DNA from: Solirubrobacteraceae bacterium
GTDB taxonomy: Bacteria; Actinomycetota; Thermoleophilia; Solirubrobacterales; Solirubrobacteraceae
Length of the DNA stretch: 64,000 bases
NCBI GenBank assembly: GCA_030447505.1
Contig: JAUJOT010000005.1
Coordinates: 323,395-387,394, forward strand
Direction: 5' to 3'
This document shows, in pieces, positions 24,378-33,638 of this stretch (positions within the stretch are counted from its first letter, which is position 1; each line of letters begins with the position of its first letter). Position numbers and translations under genes: made by a program. Under the pieces are notes generated by a model that was not told the DNA's origin, did not search any database, and worked only from the letters and a program-made list of their open reading frames with translations.

Positions 24378-25211
24378 ATGCTCGAGCGCACAGAACCGCG
24401 CTCCGACGCGACTCGCGCCGCGAGTTATCGCAGGGTCTCGCGCGCCCGCACGGATCGTCTGCTGTTCGCTCGCCGCGACGCCGGTGACCGCCGCGCTCGC
24501 GACGAGCTGATCGAGCGGTTCCTGCCGCTCGCCCGGTCGGTCGCACGGCGGTACGAGCGTCCTGGCGAGCCGCTGGACGACCTCGTCCAGGTCGCGGCCT
24601 TGGCGCTGGTGAAGGCCGTCGATCGCTTCGACGTACAACGTGGCCACGCCTTCACGAGCTTCGCGGTGCCGACGATCATCGGCGAGCTCAAGCGCTACTT
24701 CCGCGATCGCACGTGGGTTGTTCGGCCGCCGCGCGAGGTGCAGGAGCTGACGCTGCGCGTCGAAGCGGCCGCTGTGCGCCTGGGACAGAAGCTGGACCGC
24801 GCCCCAACGGTGCGCGAGCTCGCCGTAGCGATCGGCGGCAGCGACGAACAGGTGCTGGAAGCGATGCAGGCACGCGGCGGGCGCAGCGGGCTGTCGCTGG
24901 AGGCAGCGGGCGCCGACCGAGACGACGAACAGGCGTTGCACCAGACGCTCGGCGTCAGCGATGACGGTTACGCGCGTGCCGAAGACCGCATCGTCCTCGA
25001 CGGGCTGCTGGGCTATCTATCGCCGCGCGAGCGCGAGGTGGTGCGCCTGCGCTTCGAGCGGGACCTCACGCAGCGCGAGATCGCTGCACTGCTCGGGATC
25101 AGCCAGATGCAGGTGTCGCGGATCGTCCGAGCCTCGATTACGCGCCTGCGGTACGTCGCAAACCAGCAGCGCAGGCTGCAAGGCGCAGCTGCCCTTCACG
25201 CAGACGCCTGA
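24378..25211 (+). CDS. SigB/SigF-type RNA polymerase sigma factor
   Basis: A group 3 sigma factor of 277 residues. Region 2 includes ARRYERPGEPLDDLVQVAALALVKAVDRFD and the promoter-melting FTSFAVPTIIGELKRYFRD. Region 3 follows (VQELTLRVEAAAVRLGQKL, RAPTVRELAVAIGG). Region 4 has LSPREREVVRLRFERDLTQREIAALLGISQMQVSRI. This is the architecture of stress-type SigB/SigF factors. ATG 24378 has AGGCAGGA upstream. No anti-sigma (RsbW-type) gene is adjacent, so control must be exerted elsewhere. Confidence 0.92.
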   Translation: MLERTEPRSDATRAASYRRVSRARTDRLLFARRDAGDRRARDELIERFLPLARSVARRYERPGEPLDDLVQVAALALVKAVDRFDVQRGHAFTSFAVPTIIGELKRYFRDRTWVVRPPREVQELTLRVEAAAVRLGQKLDRAPTVRELAVAIGGSDEQVLEAMQARGGRSGLSLEAAGADRDDEQALHQTLGVSDDGYARAEDRIVLDGLLGYLSPREREVVRLRFERDLTQREIAALLGISQMQVSRIVRASITRLRYVANQQRRLQGAAALHADA

Positions 25212-25310
25212 GGCGAACCCGCGCGAGGACCCGAACGCTGCGCAGACGACGACGCGCTCCTCAGCAGCTCGCCTCGAGGGCGCGCGTGGCTGTCTGGAGA
25301 TCGCTCGACA

Positions 25311-25730
25311 TCAGTCCTCGACGACGAGAGTCGCCGTCATGCCCGCCTCCTCGTGTCCGCCGACCGGGCAGAACAGCTCGTAGGTTCCGGGCTCGAGATC
25401 GGCCTCGACGCGCGAGGTGCCGCCGTTGCCGACCGTTTCGCCGGTCTCGTCGACGCCCTTGCCGCGAATACCGATCGCGTGCGGGACCTCCGACGGGTTG
25501 GCCATCTCGATCGCCACGCGCCCTGACGTCGTACGCGCAGCGGTTCGCTCGAAGCGCAGCGAGCCGTCACGCGCGGCGTCGAGTCGCACCGAGCGCGCGG
25601 GCGCGTCAGCTCCACCGCAGCCCGCGGCGGCGAGCGTGAGGGCGACGAGCGCGATCGCGCCGAAGCGCCTCGAGCGCTGGGCTCCAGACCTGATTTGACA
25701 TGCATCACGAGCTATCTTTAGGCTTACCAC
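25311..25730 (-). CDS. cupredoxin-like lipoprotein
   Basis: A small exported protein (about 139 residues): basic N terminus, hydrophobic core ending LTLAAAGCGG (lipobox), then one cupredoxin domain. Blue-copper ligands are visible: His in EVPHAIGIRG, Cys in YELFCPVGGHEEAGM with His four to five residues later, and Met as the axial ligand. This is the plastocyanin/azurin pattern. GTG 25730 is the only sensible start and has no good ribosome-binding site. The gene is divergent from the multicopper oxidase operon, with 12-24 bp between starts, so one regulatory region serves both. Confidence 0.8.
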   Translation of the reverse strand: MVSLKIARDACQIRSGAQRSRRFGAIALVALTLAAAGCGGADAPARSVRLDAARDGSLRFERTAARTTSGRVAIEMANPSEVPHAIGIRGKGVDETGETVGNGGTSRVEADLEPGTYELFCPVGGHEEAGMTATLVVED

Positions 25731-25754
25731 AACCTGATTCTTATGGAGGACGAC
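25688..25754 (+). promoter_or_regulatory. divergent promoter region with DtxR-box-like dyad
   Basis: TTGACA (25695-25700) and TAGGCT (25719-25724), spaced 18 bp, form a good promoter for the oxidase operon, with the start point expected near 25731. A dyad TTAGG (25718-25722) and CCTGA (25733-25737), 10 bp apart, covers the -10 box and the start. It resembles the DtxR/IdeR/MntR consensus (TTAGG-9-CCTAA), off by one base and one spacing. The octamer ACCTGATT also occurs twice, at 25688 and 25732. The operon's third gene is a DtxR-family regulator, so this is its most likely operator. Confidence 0.5.
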
Positions 25755-26801
25755 TTGAAGGTTGATCGTAGACAACTTCTTGGCGGCGGCGCGCTGGCAG
25801 CCGCCGGAGCGTTCACGGCGCTCGACCCACGTGGCGGTCGTGCCGCGGCGCAGGACGCCGGCGCCGGGCATCGCGGTGGCGGCGGCCACGGCGCGAAGGG
25901 CCACGGCGGGGGCGCCAAGGGCCCGACGATGCGCAAAGGCGCGACCGTCGATCATCGCGCCAACGGCTTCAACCCGACCGACATCCTGCGCGACTTCGAC
26001 ATGGGCAGGACGCGGCGGCTGGCCAGCGGTCGGACGCTACGCGAATGGGAGGTGGTGGCCGCCGACAAGGAGATCGAGGTCGCGCCGGGGATCAAGTACC
26101 CGGCGTGGACGTTCAACGGCCGCGTTCCCGGTCCCTCGCTGCGGGCGCGGGAGGGCGAGCGGCTGCGGATCCGCTTCGTCAACGGCTCGTCGCACCCGCA
26201 CACGATGCACTTCCACGGCATCCACCCGGCCGAGATGGACGGTGTTCCGGAGGTCGGCGCGGGGATGATCGAGCCCGGCAAGAGCACCGTCTACGAGTTC
26301 GATGCCGAGCCGTTCGGCATGCACCTGTATCACTGCCACGTCGGTCCGCTGGCCGAGCACATCGCGCGCGGGATGTACGGCGCGTTCATCGTCGACCCCA
26401 AGCAGGGGCGTGAGGACGCCGACGAGCTGATGATGATGATGAACGGCTTCAACACGAACTTCGACGCCGAGGGCAACCAGGTCTACGCGGTCAACTCGAT
26501 CGCCTTCCACCACGTCAACGAGCCCGTGCGGGTCAGGCAGGGCGAGCTGGTGCGGATCTACCTCGCGAACATCCTCGAGTACGACCCGATCAACTCCTTC
26601 CACCTGCACGGCAACTTCTTCGAGTACTTCCCGACCGGTACGCGACTGCAGCCGGCCGACTTCACCGACACGATCAGCCAGATGCAGGGCCAGCGCGGGA
26701 TCCTCGAGGTGCGCTTCCCGCACAAGGGGATGTTCATGTTCCACGCCCACAAGACCGAGTTCGCCGAGCTCGGCTGGATGGGCTTCTTCGAGGTGGCCTG
26801 A
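25755..26801 (+). CDS. two-domain multicopper oxidase / NirK-like cupredoxin protein
   Basis: A Tat-exported copper protein; the signal reads VDRRQLLGGGALAAAGAF. TTG 25755 is preferred because GGAGGA (25745-25750) sits just ahead of it; ATG 25743 (352 residues) is the alternative, and the numbering here uses it. A Gly/His-rich linker (HRGGGGHGAKGHGGG) precedes the first cupredoxin domain, which has HTMHFHG (His 153, 156, 158) and YHCHVGPLAEHIARGM with type 1 ligands Cys198, His205 and Met211. The Cys-His spacing is longer than in laccases and close to that of copper nitrite reductase. The second domain has SFHLHG (287, 289) and FMFHAHKTEF (334, 336). The substrate could be a metal ion (cuprous, ferrous or manganous) or nitrite; its place beside ZIP and DtxR genes favours metal oxidation. 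Confidence 0.85.
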   Translation: MKVDRRQLLGGGALAAAGAFTALDPRGGRAAAQDAGAGHRGGGGHGAKGHGGGAKGPTMRKGATVDHRANGFNPTDILRDFDMGRTRRLASGRTLREWEVVAADKEIEVAPGIKYPAWTFNGRVPGPSLRAREGERLRIRFVNGSSHPHTMHFHGIHPAEMDGVPEVGAGMIEPGKSTVYEFDAEPFGMHLYHCHVGPLAEHIARGMYGAFIVDPKQGREDADELMMMMNGFNTNFDAEGNQVYAVNSIAFHHVNEPVRVRQGELVRIYLANILEYDPINSFHLHGNFFEYFPTGTRLQPADFTDTISQMQGQRGILEVRFPHKGMFMFHAHKTEFAELGWMGFFEVA

Positions 26802-28024
26802 TGGAAGCCAACAGCCACTCCCAGCCCCAGGTCGACGCCCCGCGCGCCACCCGCCGCCGCGTGCCCGCCTGGGCACTCGGGGCCATCCCGCTCGTGCTGA
26901 TCGTCGCCGCGCTCGCGGCGCTGCTCACCGTCGGCGGCGACACGCTCGGCGAGAGGCTCGGCCCGCCCGTCGAGGAGATCGCCGTCGAGCGCACCGTCCT
27001 GCGGCCGGGCGAGATCGAGCTCACCGTGCGCAACACCGGCCCTGACGACGTGACCGTCGCCCAGATGTTCGTCAACGACGCCTACGTCGACTACAGGACC
27101 AGCGCAAACCAGATCGGTCGCAACGGCACCGAGACGTTCACCCTCGACTACCCGTGGCAACCCGACTCGCCGTACCTCGTCACCCTGGTCAGCGAGACCG
27201 GCGCCACCACCGAGCACGAGATTCCCGTCGCCGTGCAGACGCCGACCCCGGACGGCCGCTTCTACGGGCTGATGGCGCTGCTCGGGCTCTACGTCGGCGT
27301 CATCCCGGTCGCGCTCGGCATGCTGTTCCTGCCGTTCCTGCGCCGCGTGCGCGAGCACTGGATCCGCTTCTTCATGGCGGTCACGATCGGCCTGCTCGGC
27401 TTCTTGGCCGTCGACGCCTACCTCGAGGGAACAGAGATCGCCGAGTCGGGCAGCGGCGCGTTCGGCGGCGCCGTGCTGCTGTTCATCGGCGCCGGGGCCG
27501 CCTACCTCGGGCTCGTCGCGCTCGATCGCGTCCTGCGCGAACGCGGCGCGCGCGCCCGCGAGACGGGAGCGAGCGCCTTCCAGCTCTCATTGCTCGTGGC
27601 GATCGGGATCGGACTGCACAACCTCGGCGAGGGGCTGGCGATCGGCTCGGCCTACGCAGTCGGCGAGCTCGCTCTGGGAGCGTTCCTGGTCTTCGGCTTC
27701 GCGCTGCACAACACGACCGAGGGCCTGGCGATCGTGGCTCCCCTCAGCGCCCACCGGCGCCCATCGCTGGCGCGCCTGGCGATGCTGGGGCTGATCGCCG
27801 GCGCTCCCGCGATCCTGGGCGCGATCATCGGCGCGTCGGCCTTCAACCCGGAGCTCGCGGCGCTCTTGATCGGCGTCGGGATCGGCGCCATTGTGCAGGT
27901 CATCGTGCAGCTCGTCCCCGCGATCCGCGACCGCGCCGGCCGCGCCCTGTACCCGGCGAGCGTCGGCGGGATCCTCGCCGGCGTCGCCGTCCTCTACATG
28001 ACCGGCCTGCTGGTGACCGCGTGA
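26801..28024 (+). CDS. ZIP-family metal permease with N-terminal exported beta domain
   Basis: A 407-residue protein. One helix (ALGAIPLVLIVAALAALL) anchors an outward domain of about 100 residues (VLRPGEIELTVRNTGPDDVTV, VNDAYVDY, YLVTLVSETGATTEHEI) of immunoglobulin/cupredoxin-like beta type without obvious copper ligands. The rest is a ZIP permease with the metal-binding helices GLHNLGEGLAIG and ALHNTTEGLAI, which bind Zn2+, Fe2+ or Mn2+ by family. It starts at 26801, sharing one base with the oxidase stop (TGATG), and its stop overlaps the DtxR gene in the same way. The extra outer domain could receive the metal from the oxidase or cupredoxin; this is inference. Confidence 0.87.
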   Translation: MEANSHSQPQVDAPRATRRRVPAWALGAIPLVLIVAALAALLTVGGDTLGERLGPPVEEIAVERTVLRPGEIELTVRNTGPDDVTVAQMFVNDAYVDYRTSANQIGRNGTETFTLDYPWQPDSPYLVTLVSETGATTEHEIPVAVQTPTPDGRFYGLMALLGLYVGVIPVALGMLFLPFLRRVREHWIRFFMAVTIGLLGFLAVDAYLEGTEIAESGSGAFGGAVLLFIGAGAAYLGLVALDRVLRERGARARETGASAFQLSLLVAIGIGLHNLGEGLAIGSAYAVGELALGAFLVFGFALHNTTEGLAIVAPLSAHRRPSLARLAMLGLIAGAPAILGAIIGASAFNPELAALLIGVGIGAIVQVIVQLVPAIRDRAGRALYPASVGGILAGVAVLYMTGLLVTA

Positions 28025-28719
28025 TGCCCGTGGTCCACCAGCCGCGGCTGTCCGAGGCGATCGAGGACTACGCCAAGGCGATCTACGCCCTCGCTCGCCG
28101 CGGCGAAGGCACGGTCACGACCAACGCCCTGGCCGAGCGCCTCGGCGTCAGCGCCGGGTCGGTGTCGGCGATGATCAAGCGACTCGCCGAGCGCGGGCTG
28201 GCCGAACACCAACCGTACCGCGGCGCGCAGCTGACGGCCGAAGGTGAACGCGTCGCCCTGTCGGTCATGCGCCACCACCGGCTGCTGGAGCTGTACCTCG
28301 CCGAACACCTCGGCGTGCCGTGGGACCGCGTCCACGAGGAAGCCGAGGCCCTCGAACACGTGATCTCCGAGGACCTCGAGGCGCGCATCGCCGCCAAGCT
28401 CGGACATCCGACCCACGACCCGCACGGCGACCCGATCCCCGACGCGAATCTCGTCATCGACGAAGGTGACACCCGCAGCCTCGCCGCGATGGAGGTCGGG
28501 GGCCGGGGACGCTTCGTGCGCGTCTCGGACGCCGACCCGGAGATGCTGCGCTACCTCGACGGGCGCGGAATCGCGCTCGGCGACGAACTCGAGGTCATCG
28601 ACCGCCAGCCCTTCGACGGGCCGCTGACCGTGCGCTTCGGCACCAAGGACCATGTCCTCGGAGGCGGACTGGCACGGGCGATGCGGATCGACGTCGCCAG
28701 CAGCGACACGACGCGCTGA
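28024..28719 (+). CDS. DtxR/MntR-family metal-dependent regulator
   Basis: A 231-residue regulator. The winged helix lies in residues 5-65 (IEDYAKAIYALARR, LAERLGVSAGSVSAMIKRLAERGL), followed by the metal-binding dimerisation domain (MRHHRLLELYLAEHLGV, EAEALEHVISEDLEARI), with His/Glu ligands typical of IdeR/MntR and the linker HPTHDPHGDPIP. A C-terminal SH3/FeoA-like domain follows. Metal-bound dimers of this family repress uptake genes. It is the third gene of the oxidase-ZIP operon and probably regulates the promoter at 25.7 kb; whether the signal is iron or manganese is not decided by the sequence. Confidence 0.9.
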   Translation: MPVVHQPRLSEAIEDYAKAIYALARRGEGTVTTNALAERLGVSAGSVSAMIKRLAERGLAEHQPYRGAQLTAEGERVALSVMRHHRLLELYLAEHLGVPWDRVHEEAEALEHVISEDLEARIAAKLGHPTHDPHGDPIPDANLVIDEGDTRSLAAMEVGGRGRFVRVSDADPEMLRYLDGRGIALGDELEVIDRQPFDGPLTVRFGTKDHVLGGGLARAMRIDVASSDTTR

Positions 28720-28830
28720 GGGGTTAGTACGTGGCGCGTGCGCGCTCGTATGTTACGGTGCTGTCGGGGACGCCAGCACGCAGCGGTCGGGCGCGGCGTG
28801 ATGGCATCAATTTCGACTGGGAGGGCTGAG

Positions 28831-29259
28831 ATGGATACGAGTCTGGCAGGGCGCGTGGGGCCGATCATCGGCGGGTTCTATGTCGCGATCGGGATCATCG
28901 GCTTCTTCGTGACCGGGTTTGACAACTTCTTGCGCAACACGCCTGAGGCGCTGCTCGGCTTCAGCATCAATCCGATGCACAACCTCGTGCACATGACGAT
29001 CGGCGCGTTTCTGATCGTGATGACGACGCGCTTCTCGACTCCTACCGCCGAGGGCGCCGTGATGGGCGTCGGGCTGTTCTACATCACGGCGTTCGTGATC
29101 GGCACCGTCGCGCCCGACAACCTGACGATCATCTCGATGACCGGCGCCGGCGACCTCGAGAACGTCAACCACATCGTCAACGGCGTGATCCTGCTGACGA
29201 CCGGGCTGATCTCGTCGGCGCGGACGCAGTCGCAGATGAGGAAACAAGGTCTGACGTAG
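28831..29259 (+). CDS. DUF4383 membrane protein, copy 1
   Basis: A 142-residue protein with four hydrophobic helices and the DUF4383 landmarks GFSINPMHNLVHMTIG and NVNHIVNGVILLTTGL. The function is unknown; the family is common in actinobacteria. The start has GGGAGGG about five bases upstream. A copy almost identical at the base level lies at 33210-33638, differing in only three residues (D2G, G7Q, K138Q), with similar upstream sequence. A hairpin follows (CGCGGCGG/CCGCCGCG, 29274-29300). Confidence 0.88.
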   Translation: MDTSLAGRVGPIIGGFYVAIGIIGFFVTGFDNFLRNTPEALLGFSINPMHNLVHMTIGAFLIVMTTRFSTPTAEGAVMGVGLFYITAFVIGTVAPDNLTIISMTGAGDLENVNHIVNGVILLTTGLISSARTQSQMRKQGLT

Positions 29260-29273
29260 CCGCAGCGGCGCGC

Positions 29274-29300
29274 CGCGGCGGGCCCGCCGGGTCCGCCGCG
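29274..29300 (+). terminator. hairpin downstream of DUF4383 copy 1
   Basis: Eight-base perfect stem CGCGGCGG/CCGCCGCG with an 11-base loop, starting 15 bases after the stop. There is no T-run, as is usual in such GC-rich genomes. Confidence 0.5.
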
Positions 29301-29404
29301 CGTCGCATCTACGAGGCGCGCTCGCCGCGCGCCTGCTCGGACCGATCCAGGCGTTTGATCGAGACGGGCTTGCGAGGCGCTGTCGGTGGGGTAATGAGTC
29401 CGGC

Positions 29405-30532
29405 GTGCGACGGATCCTGCTCGTTGTCGATTCGCTGGGCGTGGGCGGCGCGGAGCGTCATGTCGTCGATCTCGCCCGCTCGTCTGCGGCGCGCGGCGAG
29501 CAGGTGATGGTGGCCTGCTCGATCGGTGGGCCGCTGACGTCGGATCTCGAGCAGGCCGGCGTACCGCTGCGCTGCTTGACGCGTCGACTCGTCAAGCGGC
29601 GTTTGAGCCTGGTCTATGCGTGGCGGCTGCGGCGGCTCGTGCGGCGCGAGCGGTTCGACCTCGTCCATGCGCATCTTTACGCGTCGGTCACCGCGGCAGC
29701 GCTGGCGACGCTGAGGACGGACGTCCCGCTGGTCGTCACCGAGCAGACGGAGGCGCCGTGGCAGGCGTGGTTCGCGCTGCAGCTGAGCTCGTGGTCTCAT
29801 GGTCGCGCCGTGCACGTCATCGCAGTCTCCGACGCGATCGCGCGGCGGCTTCGCGAGCGCGGCGTGGCGGCAGAGAAGATCAGCGTGATTCGCAACGCGG
29901 TGCCTCCGCCTGTCGCAGCCGTCGCCGTGCGGAGCAGCATCGGTCGCGCTCCGACCGTCGGCGTCGTGGCCCGGTTGGTCGCCGAGAAGGGGCTCGACGT
30001 GCTCTTGGATGCCGCCCTCGCGCTGCGCGAGCGTGTCCCCGGCGTGCGCTTCGTCGTGGCAGGCGACGGTCCGTTGCGCCCCGCCCTCAAGGCGCGCGCC
30101 AGCCGGCTGGAGCTCGGCGCCAACGTCGAGTTCCTGGGGTTCCGGGATGACGTCTGTCAGCTGCTGGGCAGCTTCGACGTGCTCGCCGTGCACTCCCTGG
30201 CGGAGGGCACGCCGCTGAGCATCGTGGAGGCGATGTGGGCCGGCGTGCCGATCGTCGCGAGCGCCGCCGGAGGCATCCCCGAGCAGATCGCCGACGAGCG
30301 CGACGGGCTGCTCGTCGCGCGAGGTGACAGCGCCGCCCTGTCGCGCGCGCTGCTGCGCGTACTCGAGGATGACGAGCTCGCATCGCGCCTGCGCGCCGCC
30401 GGACGTGCGCGCGCTCGCTCGGAGTTCTCGCACGAGGCGATGCTCGATCGGATCCTGGCCGTCTACGCCCGTGCGGGGGCGCCGGCTGACCGCGGCTCGG
30501 CCACCGAGCCGCTCGAGCCGGCGACGGTATGA
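29405..30532 (+). CDS. family 4 glycosyltransferase
   Basis: A GT-B-fold enzyme of 375 residues. The N-terminal domain begins LLVVDSLGVGGAERHVVDLAR (GGAE motif) and has FDLVHAHLYASVTAA. The C-terminal donor-binding half has VGVVARLVAEKGLDVLLDA, FVVAGDGPLRP and EGTPLSIVEAMWAGVPIVAS, the retaining GT4 EX7E motif. It probably builds a capsule or exopolysaccharide or modifies a lipid. It starts at GTG 29405, and the next gene, a PHP phosphatase, overlaps its stop by 4 bases, which fits polysaccharide synthesis. Confidence 0.9.
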   Translation: MRRILLVVDSLGVGGAERHVVDLARSSAARGEQVMVACSIGGPLTSDLEQAGVPLRCLTRRLVKRRLSLVYAWRLRRLVRRERFDLVHAHLYASVTAAALATLRTDVPLVVTEQTEAPWQAWFALQLSSWSHGRAVHVIAVSDAIARRLRERGVAAEKISVIRNAVPPPVAAVAVRSSIGRAPTVGVVARLVAEKGLDVLLDAALALRERVPGVRFVVAGDGPLRPALKARASRLELGANVEFLGFRDDVCQLLGSFDVLAVHSLAEGTPLSIVEAMWAGVPIVASAAGGIPEQIADERDGLLVARGDSAALSRALLRVLEDDELASRLRAAGRARARSEFSHEAMLDRILAVYARAGAPADRGSATEPLEPATV

Positions 30533-31278
30533 GCCGGGCGATCGAGGCAGGACGCGCGGATATCCATGCCCATCTCCTTCCCGACGTCGACGATGGACCC
30601 GCAACGATCGAGGAGAGCCTCGACGTCGCGCGCAAGGCAGTGGCTGACGGCACGAGACGGATCGTCGCCACGCCGCACGTCGACCGCCTCGACGTGCTCG
30701 AGGTCGCCGAGCGGACCGCGGCGCTTCAAGACGCACTGGACGGCGCCGGGATCGAACTGCTCGTGCTCCCCGGAGGAGAGCTGCAGGCGGCCGACCTCTG
30801 GAGCCTCGACGGCGAGCGGCTGGACGCGATCGCCTGCGGGCCGCCCGGCCGTCAGTGGGTCCTGCTCGAGGCGCCCTGGCGCGGATCAGCCGACGTCGTT
30901 CTCGCGGCCTTCGACGAGATCCGCGCCCGCGGCCACGGGGTCGTCATCGCTCACCCCGAGCGCAGCGCCGGGCTCTGGACCGACGGCGAGCCGCTGGCCC
31001 GGCTGCTCGACGCCGGCGCCTGGGCGCAGGTCACCGCCAGCTCCTTGAACGGCGCTTCGGCAGAGATCGTCCGTGCGCGGGCAGCGCAGGTCATCCGCGC
31101 CACCAGCCGAGTCGTGATCGCGTCCGACGCGCATGACGCGTCACAGCGGCCGCCGAACCTGTCGTCTGCGATCGAGCCGATCGCTGCGCTCGGGCTCGGG
31201 CTGCCATGCGCGCGTGCGATCGTCGATCACACGGGGGAGACCTTGCTCGACGACGGCTGGCTGCCCCCCGGCGCATGA
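30529..31278 (+). CDS. PHP-domain phosphatase (CpsB/YwqE-like)
   Basis: A 249-residue metal-dependent protein-tyrosine-phosphatase-like PHP protein. Metal motifs in order: DIHAHLLPDVDDGP (residue 12 on), IVATPHVD, a Glu in the sheet before LQAADLW, VVIAHPERSAG, and VIASDAHDASQRPP. CpsB-type enzymes dephosphorylate the capsule tyrosine kinase. No such kinase or Wzz partner is in the window, so the role may be another phosphoester. It is coupled to the GT4 gene by a 4-bp overlap. Confidence 0.85.
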   Translation: MSRAIEAGRADIHAHLLPDVDDGPATIEESLDVARKAVADGTRRIVATPHVDRLDVLEVAERTAALQDALDGAGIELLVLPGGELQAADLWSLDGERLDAIACGPPGRQWVLLEAPWRGSADVVLAAFDEIRARGHGVVIAHPERSAGLWTDGEPLARLLDAGAWAQVTASSLNGASAEIVRARAAQVIRATSRVVIASDAHDASQRPPNLSSAIEPIAALGLGLPCARAIVDHTGETLLDDGWLPPGA

Positions 31279-31364
31279 CGCCGCTCAGGCCGCCGACGCG
31301 CAGCACCGCGCGAGCCGGTCGGCCAGATGCCTTCGACGCGATCTCCGTGACCCCGCAGACGGCG

Positions 31365-32288
31365 TCAGTCGTCGGCGCGCACCTGCACGCGACCGTCGTG
31401 GATGCGCGCCTTCCAGACGGGCTGGTGATCGGCGGCCGGACCGCGCATCACGTGGCCGTCTACGAGCCGGAAGATGCTCGAGTGCCACGGGCACTTCAGG
31501 CAGCCGTCGACGAGCTCCCCCTCGTCGAGCGGTCCGCCCGCGTGGACGCAGGTCGCCGACAGCGCGAACAGTCCGTCCGCTGTCCTGACCACCACGACCG
31601 GCACTCCATCGGCGTCGACGCGCAGCGGCGCGTTCTCCTCGAGCGCGTCGGCGCTCGCGACGTCGGTCCAGTCCGTGGGCCGGTGCTCGAAGGCGGCGTG
31701 ATTGACGCCGACCCCGCGGCCGTAGACGAGATGGCCGCCGAGGTAGCCCGCGGCCGCGACGACGCCGAGACCGGTCATGCTGAGCGCCGCTCCGAGCGCG
31801 CGTCGGCCGCGGCGGCGGGCGCCGTAGGAGACGATCTGCAGCGTGAGCGCAGCCGTGTTGCCGAGCGCGTGGACGACGCCGACGCGCTGGTCGGGCCCGT
31901 AGGTCTCCGCCCAGTCCGACAGCCCGCTGGCCGCGGTCGGGACCGCTGAGAGGATTCCGAGCGCGGTGAGCCGGCGGGCGCTGTCGGCGCCCGTGGCGCC
32001 GCCGACGACGTCGACGGCGGCGGCGCTCAACCAGGCGCCGATCGTGACGTCGGTCAGCACAGGATGCAGCTGATGGCCGAGCCAGGTCCCGCTCAACGCG
32101 TTCTTGACCGGCGTCGGCTGGGTCGCACGTCCGACCGCACGCGCAAGCGGCGCGGCGATCGCATCAAGCTGCTGCGCTGACGCGATCTGATCGACGAGCG
32201 CCCGCGGATCCATCCGAACGCGCCCGTTCAGAGTCGGCTGTTGCTGATCGGAGAGCTCGGCGTCGTCGATGCCGGTTGTCTCAGCCAT
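31365..32288 (-). CDS. DUF2231-Rieske fusion protein
   Basis: A 307-residue protein. The N-terminal part has the DUF2231 membrane region (GHQLHPVLTDVTIGAWLSAAAVDVV, then several helices). The last 100 residues are a Rieske [2Fe-2S] domain with SATCVHAGGPLDEGELVDGCLKCPWHSSIFRL, holding both CxH and CxxH ligand pairs. It would be a membrane-tethered electron carrier; redox partners are unknown. A DUF2231 protein without Rieske lies at 41734-42288. The PHP gene is convergent, 86 bp away; the folE gene lies 57 bp upstream on the same strand. Confidence 0.9.
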   Translation of the reverse strand: MAETTGIDDAELSDQQQPTLNGRVRMDPRALVDQIASAQQLDAIAAPLARAVGRATQPTPVKNALSGTWLGHQLHPVLTDVTIGAWLSAAAVDVVGGATGADSARRLTALGILSAVPTAASGLSDWAETYGPDQRVGVVHALGNTAALTLQIVSYGARRRGRRALGAALSMTGLGVVAAAGYLGGHLVYGRGVGVNHAAFEHRPTDWTDVASADALEENAPLRVDADGVPVVVVRTADGLFALSATCVHAGGPLDEGELVDGCLKCPWHSSIFRLVDGHVMRGPAADHQPVWKARIHDGRVQVRADD

Positions 32289-33209: not shown

Positions 33210-33638
33210 ATGGGTACGAGTCTGGCGCAGCGCGTGGGGCCGATCATCGGCGGGTTCTATGTCGCGATCGGGATCATCGGCTTCTTCGTGACCGGGTTTG
33301 ACAACTTCTTGCGCAACACGCCTGAGGCGCTGCTCGGCTTCAGCATCAATCCGATGCACAACCTCGTGCACATGACGATCGGCGCGTTTCTGATCGTGAT
33401 GACGACGCGCTTCTCGACTCCTACCGCCGAGGGCGCCGTGATGGGCGTCGGGCTGTTCTACATCACGGCGTTCGTGATCGGCACCGTCGCGCCCGACAAC
33501 CTGACGATCATCTCGATGACCGGCGCCGGCGACCTCGAGAACGTCAACCACATCGTCAACGGCGTGATCCTGCTGACGACCGGGCTGATCTCGTCGGCGC
33601 GGACGCAGTCGCAGATGAGACAACAAGGTCTGACGTAA
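33210..33638 (+). CDS. DUF4383 membrane protein, copy 2
   Basis: A 142-residue near-duplicate of the protein at 28831-29259. The coding sequences are identical over almost the whole length; differences are limited to the first codons and the last few. The upstream region keeps the general pattern (a TTAC-GTGCTG motif about 70 bases before the start, and GGGAGGGGCTGAG before the ATG), so copy 2 probably has its own promoter. The direct orientation of the two copies would allow recombination that deletes the 4.4 kb between them. Confidence 0.88.
   Translation: MGTSLAQRVGPIIGGFYVAIGIIGFFVTGFDNFLRNTPEALLGFSINPMHNLVHMTIGAFLIVMTTRFSTPTAEGAVMGVGLFYITAFVIGTVAPDNLTIISMTGAGDLENVNHIVNGVILLTTGLISSARTQSQMRQQGLT

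What the first reader, a model, noticed from the sequence alone, without database searches (positions are those of the whole stretch)
25688..25754. DtxR-like dyad over the -10 box of the metal operon
TTAGG at 25718 and CCTGA at 25733 overlap the -10 and start point of a TTGACA-18-TAGGCT promoter, in front of an operon that encodes a DtxR-family regulator. Spacing is 10 instead of 9, and one base differs from consensus. The same region also contains two ACCTGATT octamers.
Basis: partly seen in the sequence, partly recalled or inferred. Interest (0 to 1): 0.5.

Follow-up and report, generated by a model that had tools for sequence, protein, structure and literature searches.

The report
Manganese-repressor operator before oxidase–ZIP operon
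A short mirrored DNA sequence in front of a copper-oxidase and metal-transporter operon looks like the docking site of a manganese-sensing repressor; related bacteria carry the same kind of site in front of their standard manganese importer, so this operon may be an alternative way to take up manganese.

Summary
TTAGG-N10-CCTGA is not conserved and not beyond chance. The conserved dyad is 25717-25732, TTTAGGCTTACCACAA. Two palindromic motifs were learned without the window from other genomes' multicopper-oxidase (MCO) promoters: 54 loci outside Thermoleophilia and 47 within it. Both rank this 16-mer first in the 64 kb. The local regulator is MntR-type, not DtxR/IdeR-type (Asp and Glu where DtxR has Met and Cys). 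In relatives, the motif lies upstream of the manganese transporter gene mntH in 23 of the 30 best-scoring Nramp loci. In 6 of the other 7, mntH sits inside an MCO-ZIP-mntR-mntH cluster; the seventh is borderline. The host genome shows no Nramp. Across 101 genomes MCO and Nramp are negatively associated (Fisher p=2e-5; one genome per genus p=0.002). Best reading: an MntR box over the promoter of an autoregulated MCO-ZIP-mntR operon, repressed when Mn(II) (perhaps also Fe(II)) is plentiful; MCO-ZIP is probably an alternative Mn-acquisition module. Operator and regulator type are well supported. Binding, metal and transport are inferred; nothing was measured.

The parts
25717..25732 (.). MntR-type operator TTTAGGCTTACCACAA (dyad TTTAGG-N4-CCACAA); overlaps the predicted -10 and start point
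   Evidence: Top site of the 64 kb with two motifs learned without the window; same motif in front of MCO orthologues and of mntR-mntH in relatives
25693..25708 (.). Possible second, weaker operator ATTTGACATGCATCAC over the -35, 24 bp upstream of the first
   Evidence: 10.9 bits with the Thermoleophilia motif (0.22 such sites expected per shuffled 64 kb), 8.0 bits with the other (7.05 expected per 64 kb); part of the score comes from the TTGACA hexamer itself
25696..25701 (+). -35 hexamer TTGACA of the presumed operon promoter
   Evidence: Sequence; L002 (TTGCTA) and L003 (ATGACG) have 4-of-6 hexamers at the same 18-base spacing, the other 5 relatives checked do not; not listed by the consensus scan
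25719..25724 (+). -10 hexamer TAGGCT (3 of 6 to TATAAT), inside the left half of the operator
   Evidence: Sequence and spacing only; no start site measured
25745..25749 (+). Likely ribosome binding site GGAGG, 5 bases before TTG 25755
   Evidence: Sequence; L013 has GGAGG 6 bases before the homologous TTG
25755..26801 (+). Two-domain multicopper oxidase with a Tat-like N terminus (start TTG 25755 preferred to ATG 25743)
   Evidence: Pfam Cu-oxidase_3 and Cu-oxidase_2; best PDB match 3gdc, 448 bits; four HxH motifs and C194 invariant in 14 sequences
26801..28024 (+). ZIP-like permease with an extra N-terminal stretch
   Evidence: Pfam Zip 23.9 bits, below its cut-off of 35.1; residues 145-399 match BbZIP structures, about 35 bits
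28021..28719 (+). MntR-type DtxR-superfamily regulator (HTH, dimerisation domain, FeoA domain); GTG 28021 or ATG 28024, overlapping the ZIP stop
   Evidence: Pfam; best PDB match 5zr4, 183 bits; NCBIfam MntR 224 bits, below the cut-off of 350
25311..25730 (-). Divergent cupredoxin-like lipoprotein sharing the control region; its only canonical in-frame start near the mature protein (GTG 25730-25728) lies inside the operator
   Evidence: SoxE 22.2 bits, cut-off 21; homologues in the same divergent position in L002 and L003

Best explanation
25717-25732 is the operator of the MntR-type repressor encoded by the third gene of the same operon. With Mn(II) (possibly also Fe(II)) bound, a repressor dimer would sit on TTTAGG-N4-CCACAA, cover the -10 and start point, and shut off MCO, ZIP and its own gene; a weaker second site over the -35 may take a second dimer. 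When the metal is scarce the repressor would leave and the operon would be made. The MCO-ZIP pair is most likely an alternative Mn-acquisition module of the MntR regulon, used in this genome, in which no Nramp/MntH was found. Shown here: the conserved dyad, the regulator type, the gene linkage, the shared motif before mntH in relatives, and no Nramp match in the host. Inferred: binding, metal, direction of regulation and transported ion. My confidence is about 0.85 that this is an MntR-type operator and about 0.5 that MCO-ZIP takes up Mn.
For: Palindromic motif search on MCO upstream regions, window left out, gave gTTcGGcatgCCgAAc (54 loci outside Thermoleophilia) and TTTaGgCATGcCtAAA (47 Thermoleophilia); both put the window's best hit at 25717. 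Across groups: outside motif on Thermoleophilia 30 of 47 at p<=0.01 and 40 of 47 at p<=0.05; Thermoleophilia motif on the others 20 of 54 and 26 of 54; coding-sequence controls 0 of 39 and 0 of 54 at p<=0.05. Where the regulator gene lies before MCO, 5 of 12 loci have the site before the regulator gene at p<=0.01. Of the 30 best-scoring Nramp loci of relatives, 23 carry the site upstream at p<=0.01, in 19 of these just before a regulator gene 60-70% identical to the window's; 6 of the 7 misses are MCO-ZIP-mntR-mntH clusters, whose box lies before MCO (p<=0.025 in all 6). Four of four such Nramp proteins tested pass NCBIfam's MntH cut-off. Regulator ligands are MntR-type and MntR outscores DtxR. 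No Nramp match in the host genome (97.65% complete). MCO and Nramp are negatively associated: 21 both, 23 MCO only, 50 Nramp only, 7 neither, p=1.9e-5; one genome per genus, 47 genera, p=0.0019.
Against: The window site has 4 mismatches to TTTAGGCATGCCTAAA, and a genome search with up to 3 finds nothing. Its right half is degenerate, and the promoter's -10 matches 3 of 6. The regulator is below the NCBIfam MntR cut-off (224 against 350) and has Lys at the MntR Glu11 position, as in DR2539, which responds to both Mn(II) and Fe(II). 28 of 54 non-Thermoleophilia loci show no site at p<=0.05 before MCO, and 7 of 12 regulator-first loci miss p<=0.01. No convincing second site of this motif was found elsewhere in the host genome (4 pattern sites against 8 for the reversed control). 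MCO and Nramp coexist in 21 of 44 MCO genomes; within genera the association is weak (odds ratio about 0.4 over 5 informative genera), and some genomes are only 64-80% complete. The genome has two ZnuA-type binding proteins that could serve Mn. The closest published case, linked MCO and permease genes in an ammonia-oxidising archaeon, was proposed for copper.
Confidence: 0.8

Rival explanations
1. The site is an iron (IdeR/DtxR) box and the operon serves iron uptake or ferroxidation, with MCO-ZIP working like Fet3-Ftr1.
For: The core resembles the DtxR box (recalled), DR2539 responds to Mn(II) and Fe(II) and shares the Lys at the Glu11 position, and MCOs can be ferroxidases (general knowledge).
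Against: Asp and Glu replace the DtxR Met and Cys ligands. MntR matches outscore DtxR and IdeR. The same motif precedes mntR-mntH in relatives. No site with up to 3 mismatches to the DtxR 19-mer in the window.
Confidence: 0.1
2. The reader's TTAGG-N10-CCTGA dyad, with the ACCTGATT octamers, is the operator.
For: The letters are present, and two copies of the octamer in one window are unusual (2 of 100 shuffles).
Against: CCTGA exact in register in 1 of 62 loci and ACCTGATT in 1 of 62, the window; chance-level count of the dyad.
Confidence: 0.03
3. The box belongs to an MntR regulon, but MCO-ZIP handles copper, zinc or oxidative stress rather than Mn uptake.
For: Linked MCO and permease genes in Nitrososphaera viennensis were proposed for Cu; MCO1 and its adjacent permease rise modestly under Cu limitation. 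ZIP proteins can carry several divalent metals (general knowledge). MCO coexists with Nramp in 21 of 44 MCO genomes.
Against: Shared motif and clustering with mntH, and the negative association with Nramp, fit Mn better.
Confidence: 0.35
4. The dyad is a chance palindrome at an ordinary promoter.
For: Weak right half; the -10 hexamer accounts for some of its letters.
Against: 0 of 100 (Thermoleophilia motif) and 4 of 100 (other motif) shuffles of 64 kb reach its score anywhere, and it lies at the expected place.
Confidence: 0.04

Closest known systems
mntH promoter inverted repeat bound by DR2539, Deinococcus radiodurans (PMC3327659, passages seen)
   Same: A DtxR-superfamily repressor with an SH3-like domain and Lys in place of MntR Glu11, acting at an inverted repeat of a Mn transporter promoter
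   Different: Target here is MCO-ZIP-mntR, not mntH; the repeat's letters were not in the passages I saw, so the sites were not compared
MntR (Rv2788) of Mycobacterium tuberculosis (papers seen only as entries of a reference list; that PDB 5zr4 is this protein is recalled)
   Same: Closest solved relative of the window regulator (183 bits), with Asp and Glu at the same positions and Lys at the Glu11 position
   Different: Its DNA box could not be read (paper not held)
DtxR/IdeR iron box, TTAGGTTAGCCTAACCTAA (recalled)
   Same: Contains the same TTAG-N6-CTAA core geometry
   Different: No 19-bp match with up to 3 mismatches in the window; regulator ligands differ
Linked MCO1-permease genes of Nitrososphaera viennensis (PMC7785015, section 10 read, other passages seen)
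   Same: Two-domain MCO gene beside a zinc/iron permease gene; a Fet3-like scheme was proposed
   Different: Copper was proposed; the words DtxR and manganese do not occur in its main text

Membership tests
MntR-type operator (DtxR superfamily) | Palindromic TTAG-N6-CTAA-like core | tested here: met
   TTAG-GCTTAC-CACAA; the left half is perfect, the right half degenerate; 18.2 and 15.6 bits, top of 64 kb
MntR-type operator (DtxR superfamily) | Conserved in front of orthologous operons | tested here: met
   30 of 47 and 20 of 54 loci at p<=0.01, coding controls 0 of 39 and 0 of 54
MntR-type operator (DtxR superfamily) | Also precedes manganese transporter genes of the lineage | tested here: met
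   23 of the 30 best-scoring Nramp loci of relatives; 4 of 4 tested Nramp proteins pass the MntH cut-off. No second target found in the host genome itself
MntR-type operator (DtxR superfamily) | Metal-dependent binding of the cognate repressor | not testable with these tools
   Needs purified protein
MntR-type regulator | Fe_dep_repress HTH and Fe_dep_repr_C domains | tested here: met
   63.4 and 106.1 bits, above the cut-offs of 26 and 27
MntR-type regulator | Asp and Glu at the DtxR Met10 and Cys102 positions | tested here: met
   D16 and E109 in the alignments (DtxR residue numbers recalled)
MntR-type regulator | Glu11 of the classical binuclear MntR site | tested here: not met
   K19 at that position, as Lys in DR2539; so it is not a Bacillus-type MntR
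MntR-type regulator | Score above the NCBIfam MntR equivalog NF047407 cut-off | tested here: not met
   223.7 against 350 bits; best match, but not filed as that equivalog
DtxR/IdeR iron regulator and box | Met and Cys metal ligands; 19-bp box | tested here: not met
   D16 and E109 instead; no site with up to 3 mismatches in the window
   Exact in 1 of 62, the window; 2 of 62 with one mismatch

The most novel reading that the evidence does not exclude
MCO-ZIP is an oxidase-coupled manganese acquisition system (a manganese counterpart of yeast Fet3-Ftr1) under MntR control, found across Actinomycetota and in Chloroflexi, which stands in for MntH in lineages that lack Nramp.
Probability: 0.3. 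Interest if true: 0.75.

Novelty: new variant of a known kind. Interest (0 to 1): 0.5.

Why it matters
It assigns a regulator, and through it a likely metal, to a widespread gene pair (two-domain MCO plus ZIP) for which I found only a copper proposal. It predicts how actinobacteria without MntH may get manganese. It gives a regulon motif that can be scanned in thousands of genomes. It also makes testable whether an extracellular copper oxidase can serve manganese uptake; in Pseudomonas putida GB-1, Mn-oxidising cells hold more intracellular Mn than non-oxidising mutants (PMC3798386, abstract read).

Tried and rejected
Literal DtxR 19-mer: none in the window. Genome-wide regulon by pattern: TTTNGGNNNNCCNAAA with up to 1 mismatch gives 4 sites against 8 for the reversed control. 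I listed open frames around the 3 sites other than the operon's (L127, L128, L130) and saw no metal gene by eye; I ran no family search on those frames, so the regulon outside this operon stays open. The two ZnuA-type loci and the second DtxR-type regulator of the genome carry no strong site (best is one site in L163, 8.2 and 9.9 bits). Consensus promoter scan: nothing found in 24500-32000. Paper searches for MntR, DtxR or manganese with MCO and/or ZIP, for MCO-ZIP in Nitrososphaera and for MntR motifs listed no paper whose title or abstract start describes an MntR-controlled MCO-ZIP operon. The library holds only open-licence PMC papers; I opened 8 papers, in part only.

Dropped or limited before counts: L001 and L032 (the window itself), L035 and L118 were left out of the motif sets by hand; L035 does carry TTTAGACATGCCATAA. 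L038, L040, L042 and L044 gave no MCO match, L031 lacks MCO. The two groups were assigned by me from record titles and kinship; a few records are named only to phylum or class (for example L069, L122, L123). Identical upstream ends were merged, but near-duplicates remain (for example L039 and L113, L027 and L045, L076 and L081), so counts are not fully independent. Coding controls cover 39 of the 47 Thermoleophilia loci. In one search, L052 and L077 were too short and are not among the 12; L083 is among the 12 although only a fragment of its regulator matched and the scanned stretch is misplaced. Only the 30 best-scoring Nramp matches were fetched and scanned; p values come from 200 shuffles (coding controls 100). 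A first, cruder scan of the Nramp loci used shorter stretches and was replaced. For the co-occurrence table, MCO-positive means best match at E<=1e-80 (44 of 101) and Nramp-positive means over the cut-off (71 of 101); 9 Nramp-negative genomes are not listed by the tool and follow by exclusion. The genus table leaves out G081 and G098, whose genus was not shown.

Full report
What is there. TTAGG (25718), CCTGA (25733), two ACCTGATT octamers, TTGACA and TAGGCT are all at the stated places. The operon is MCO (25755-26801), ZIP-like permease (26801-28024) and a DtxR-superfamily regulator (28021-28719). The MCO probably starts at TTG 25755 behind GGAGG, not at ATG 25743; a relative with the homologous TTG also has GGAGG close before it (L013). 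A cupredoxin-like lipoprotein gene is divergent and keeps that position in L002 and L003.

TTAGG-N10-CCTGA with up to one mismatch is at chance level in the window (2 found, 0.49 expected, 11 of 100 shuffles reach 2). The octamer pair is unusual by count (2 of 100 shuffles). But of 62 loci, window included, with a box of at least 9 bits and enough sequence behind it, only the window has exact CCTGA in that register (one more with a mismatch), and only the window has ACCTGATT. By contrast, 51 of the 62 have a right half within 2 mismatches of CCTAAA in the N4 register.

A different register is conserved. MCO orthologues were found in relatives and in 80 named loci, the best of 559, from Actinomycetota and Chloroflexi. 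A ZIP match follows MCO on the same strand in 78 of these 80; the two without end at the contig edge. Palindromic motif discovery, window excluded, gave gTTcGGcatgCCgAAc from 54 loci outside Thermoleophilia and TTTaGgCATGcCtAAA from 47 Thermoleophilia. The best hit of both in the window is 25717-25732, TTTAGGCTTACCACAA. It is the best site of all 64 kb with both. With the Thermoleophilia motif 0 of 100 whole-window shuffles reach it (close relatives are in that training set); with the other motif, 4 of 100 do. Cross-group tests: 30 of 47 and 20 of 54 loci at p<=0.01 (40 of 47 and 26 of 54 at p<=0.05), coding controls 0 of 39 and 0 of 54 even at p<=0.05. Many of the misses have the regulator gene first; there the site tends to lie in front of the regulator gene (5 of 12 at p<=0.01). 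A weaker second site, 25693-25708, overlaps the -35; its support is modest.

The regulator is MntR-type. Its best PDB match is 5zr4 (183 bits; M. tuberculosis MntR by recall), then 8pvt (170 bits); entries named IdeR, DtxR or DtxR-family iron repressor reach at most 95 bits. It has Asp and Glu where DtxR has Met and Cys, and Lys where classical MntR has Glu11. DR2539 of Deinococcus has Lys there too and responds to Mn(II) and Fe(II) (PMC3327659, passages), so a dual response is possible. NCBIfam puts MntR (224 bits, below the 350 cut-off) far above DtxR (98 bits).

The same motif precedes mntH in relatives. Nramp was found above cut-off in 71 of 101 genomes but not in the window's own. Of the 30 best-scoring Nramp loci, 23 carry the MCO-trained motif upstream at p<=0.01: 19 just before a regulator gene 60-70% identical to the window's, 4 (L136, L139, L156, L160) before Nramp with no regulator gene in the stretch. 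Six of the seven others (L135, L149, L153, L157, L158, L161) have ZIP and regulator genes directly before Nramp, with MCO further upstream on the same strand; their box is before MCO (L023, L034, L025, L029, L022, L019; p<=0.025). The seventh, L137, has p=0.015 and a divergent regulator gene. The outside motif picks the same site in 19 of the 23. All four Nramp proteins tested pass the MntH cut-off. MCO and Nramp are negatively associated (21 both, 23 MCO only, 50 Nramp only, 7 neither, p=1.9e-5; one genome per genus, 47 genera, p=0.0019; weak within genera). Some genomes are incomplete, and the tables do not fully correct for descent.

Mechanism. Promoter TTGACA-18-TAGGCT puts a weak -10 (3 of 6) inside the left half of the box. 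L002 (TTGCTA) and L003 (ATGACG) keep a 4-of-6 -35 at the 18-base spacing; 5 other relatives checked do not. In a part of the relatives a -10-like hexamer (CATAAT and similar) lies in the right half instead: 18 of 62 MCO boxes and 11 of 23 Nramp-set boxes, with a start-like codon exactly 7 bases later in 12 of the 18 and 4 of the 11 (frame not checked), as if leaderless. Either way a bound repressor would block RNA polymerase. That the repressor binds here, with which metal, and that MCO-ZIP imports Mn are inferences. The genome also has two ZnuA-type binding proteins, so MCO-ZIP need not be its only Mn importer.

Compared with the literature. Linked MCO and permease genes were noted in Nitrososphaera viennensis and proposed for Cu uptake (PMC7785015, section 10 read). 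Mn oxidation is associated with higher intracellular Mn in P. putida GB-1 (PMC3798386, abstract). My searches listed no report, by title or abstract start, of an MntR-controlled MCO-ZIP operon, within a partial library. I therefore rate the operator itself as a known kind and its target as a new variant.

Noticed in passing
window 28807-29259 and 33210-33638: Two near-identical DUF4383 genes about 4.4 kb apart, suggesting a recent duplication.
   Followed up: no
window 25311-25730 (-): Divergent cupredoxin-like lipoprotein, in the same divergent position in L002 and L003; its likeliest canonical start (GTG) lies inside the operator, so it may be co-regulated.
   Followed up: partly
window 24387-25211 (+): Sigma-70-family factor with regions 2, 3 and 4 (sigma-B/F-like in appearance), converging on the cupredoxin gene.
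   Followed up: no
L013/L106 (G033:C22): MCO gene lies in two pieces, residues 5-267 and 268-352, in adjacent open frames.
   Followed up: no
L132 (G000:C9:151097): A second DtxR-superfamily regulator in the genome, also with Glu at the DtxR Cys position; no strong box nearby.
   Followed up: partly
L017, L020, L026, L027, L030, L033 and others: -10-like hexamer inside the box with a start-like codon 7 bases later: leaderless-looking MCO transcripts, and some mntR-mntH ones.
   Followed up: partly
L126 (Anaerolineales, Chloroflexi): A 20-bit copy of the motif (TTTAGCTAAGTCTAAA) before MCO-ZIP outside Actinomycetota.
   Followed up: no
L163, L164 (G000:C1, C10): Two ZnuA-type metal-binding proteins; L164 is followed by an ABC-type ATPase-like frame; no strong MntR box.
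   Followed up: partly
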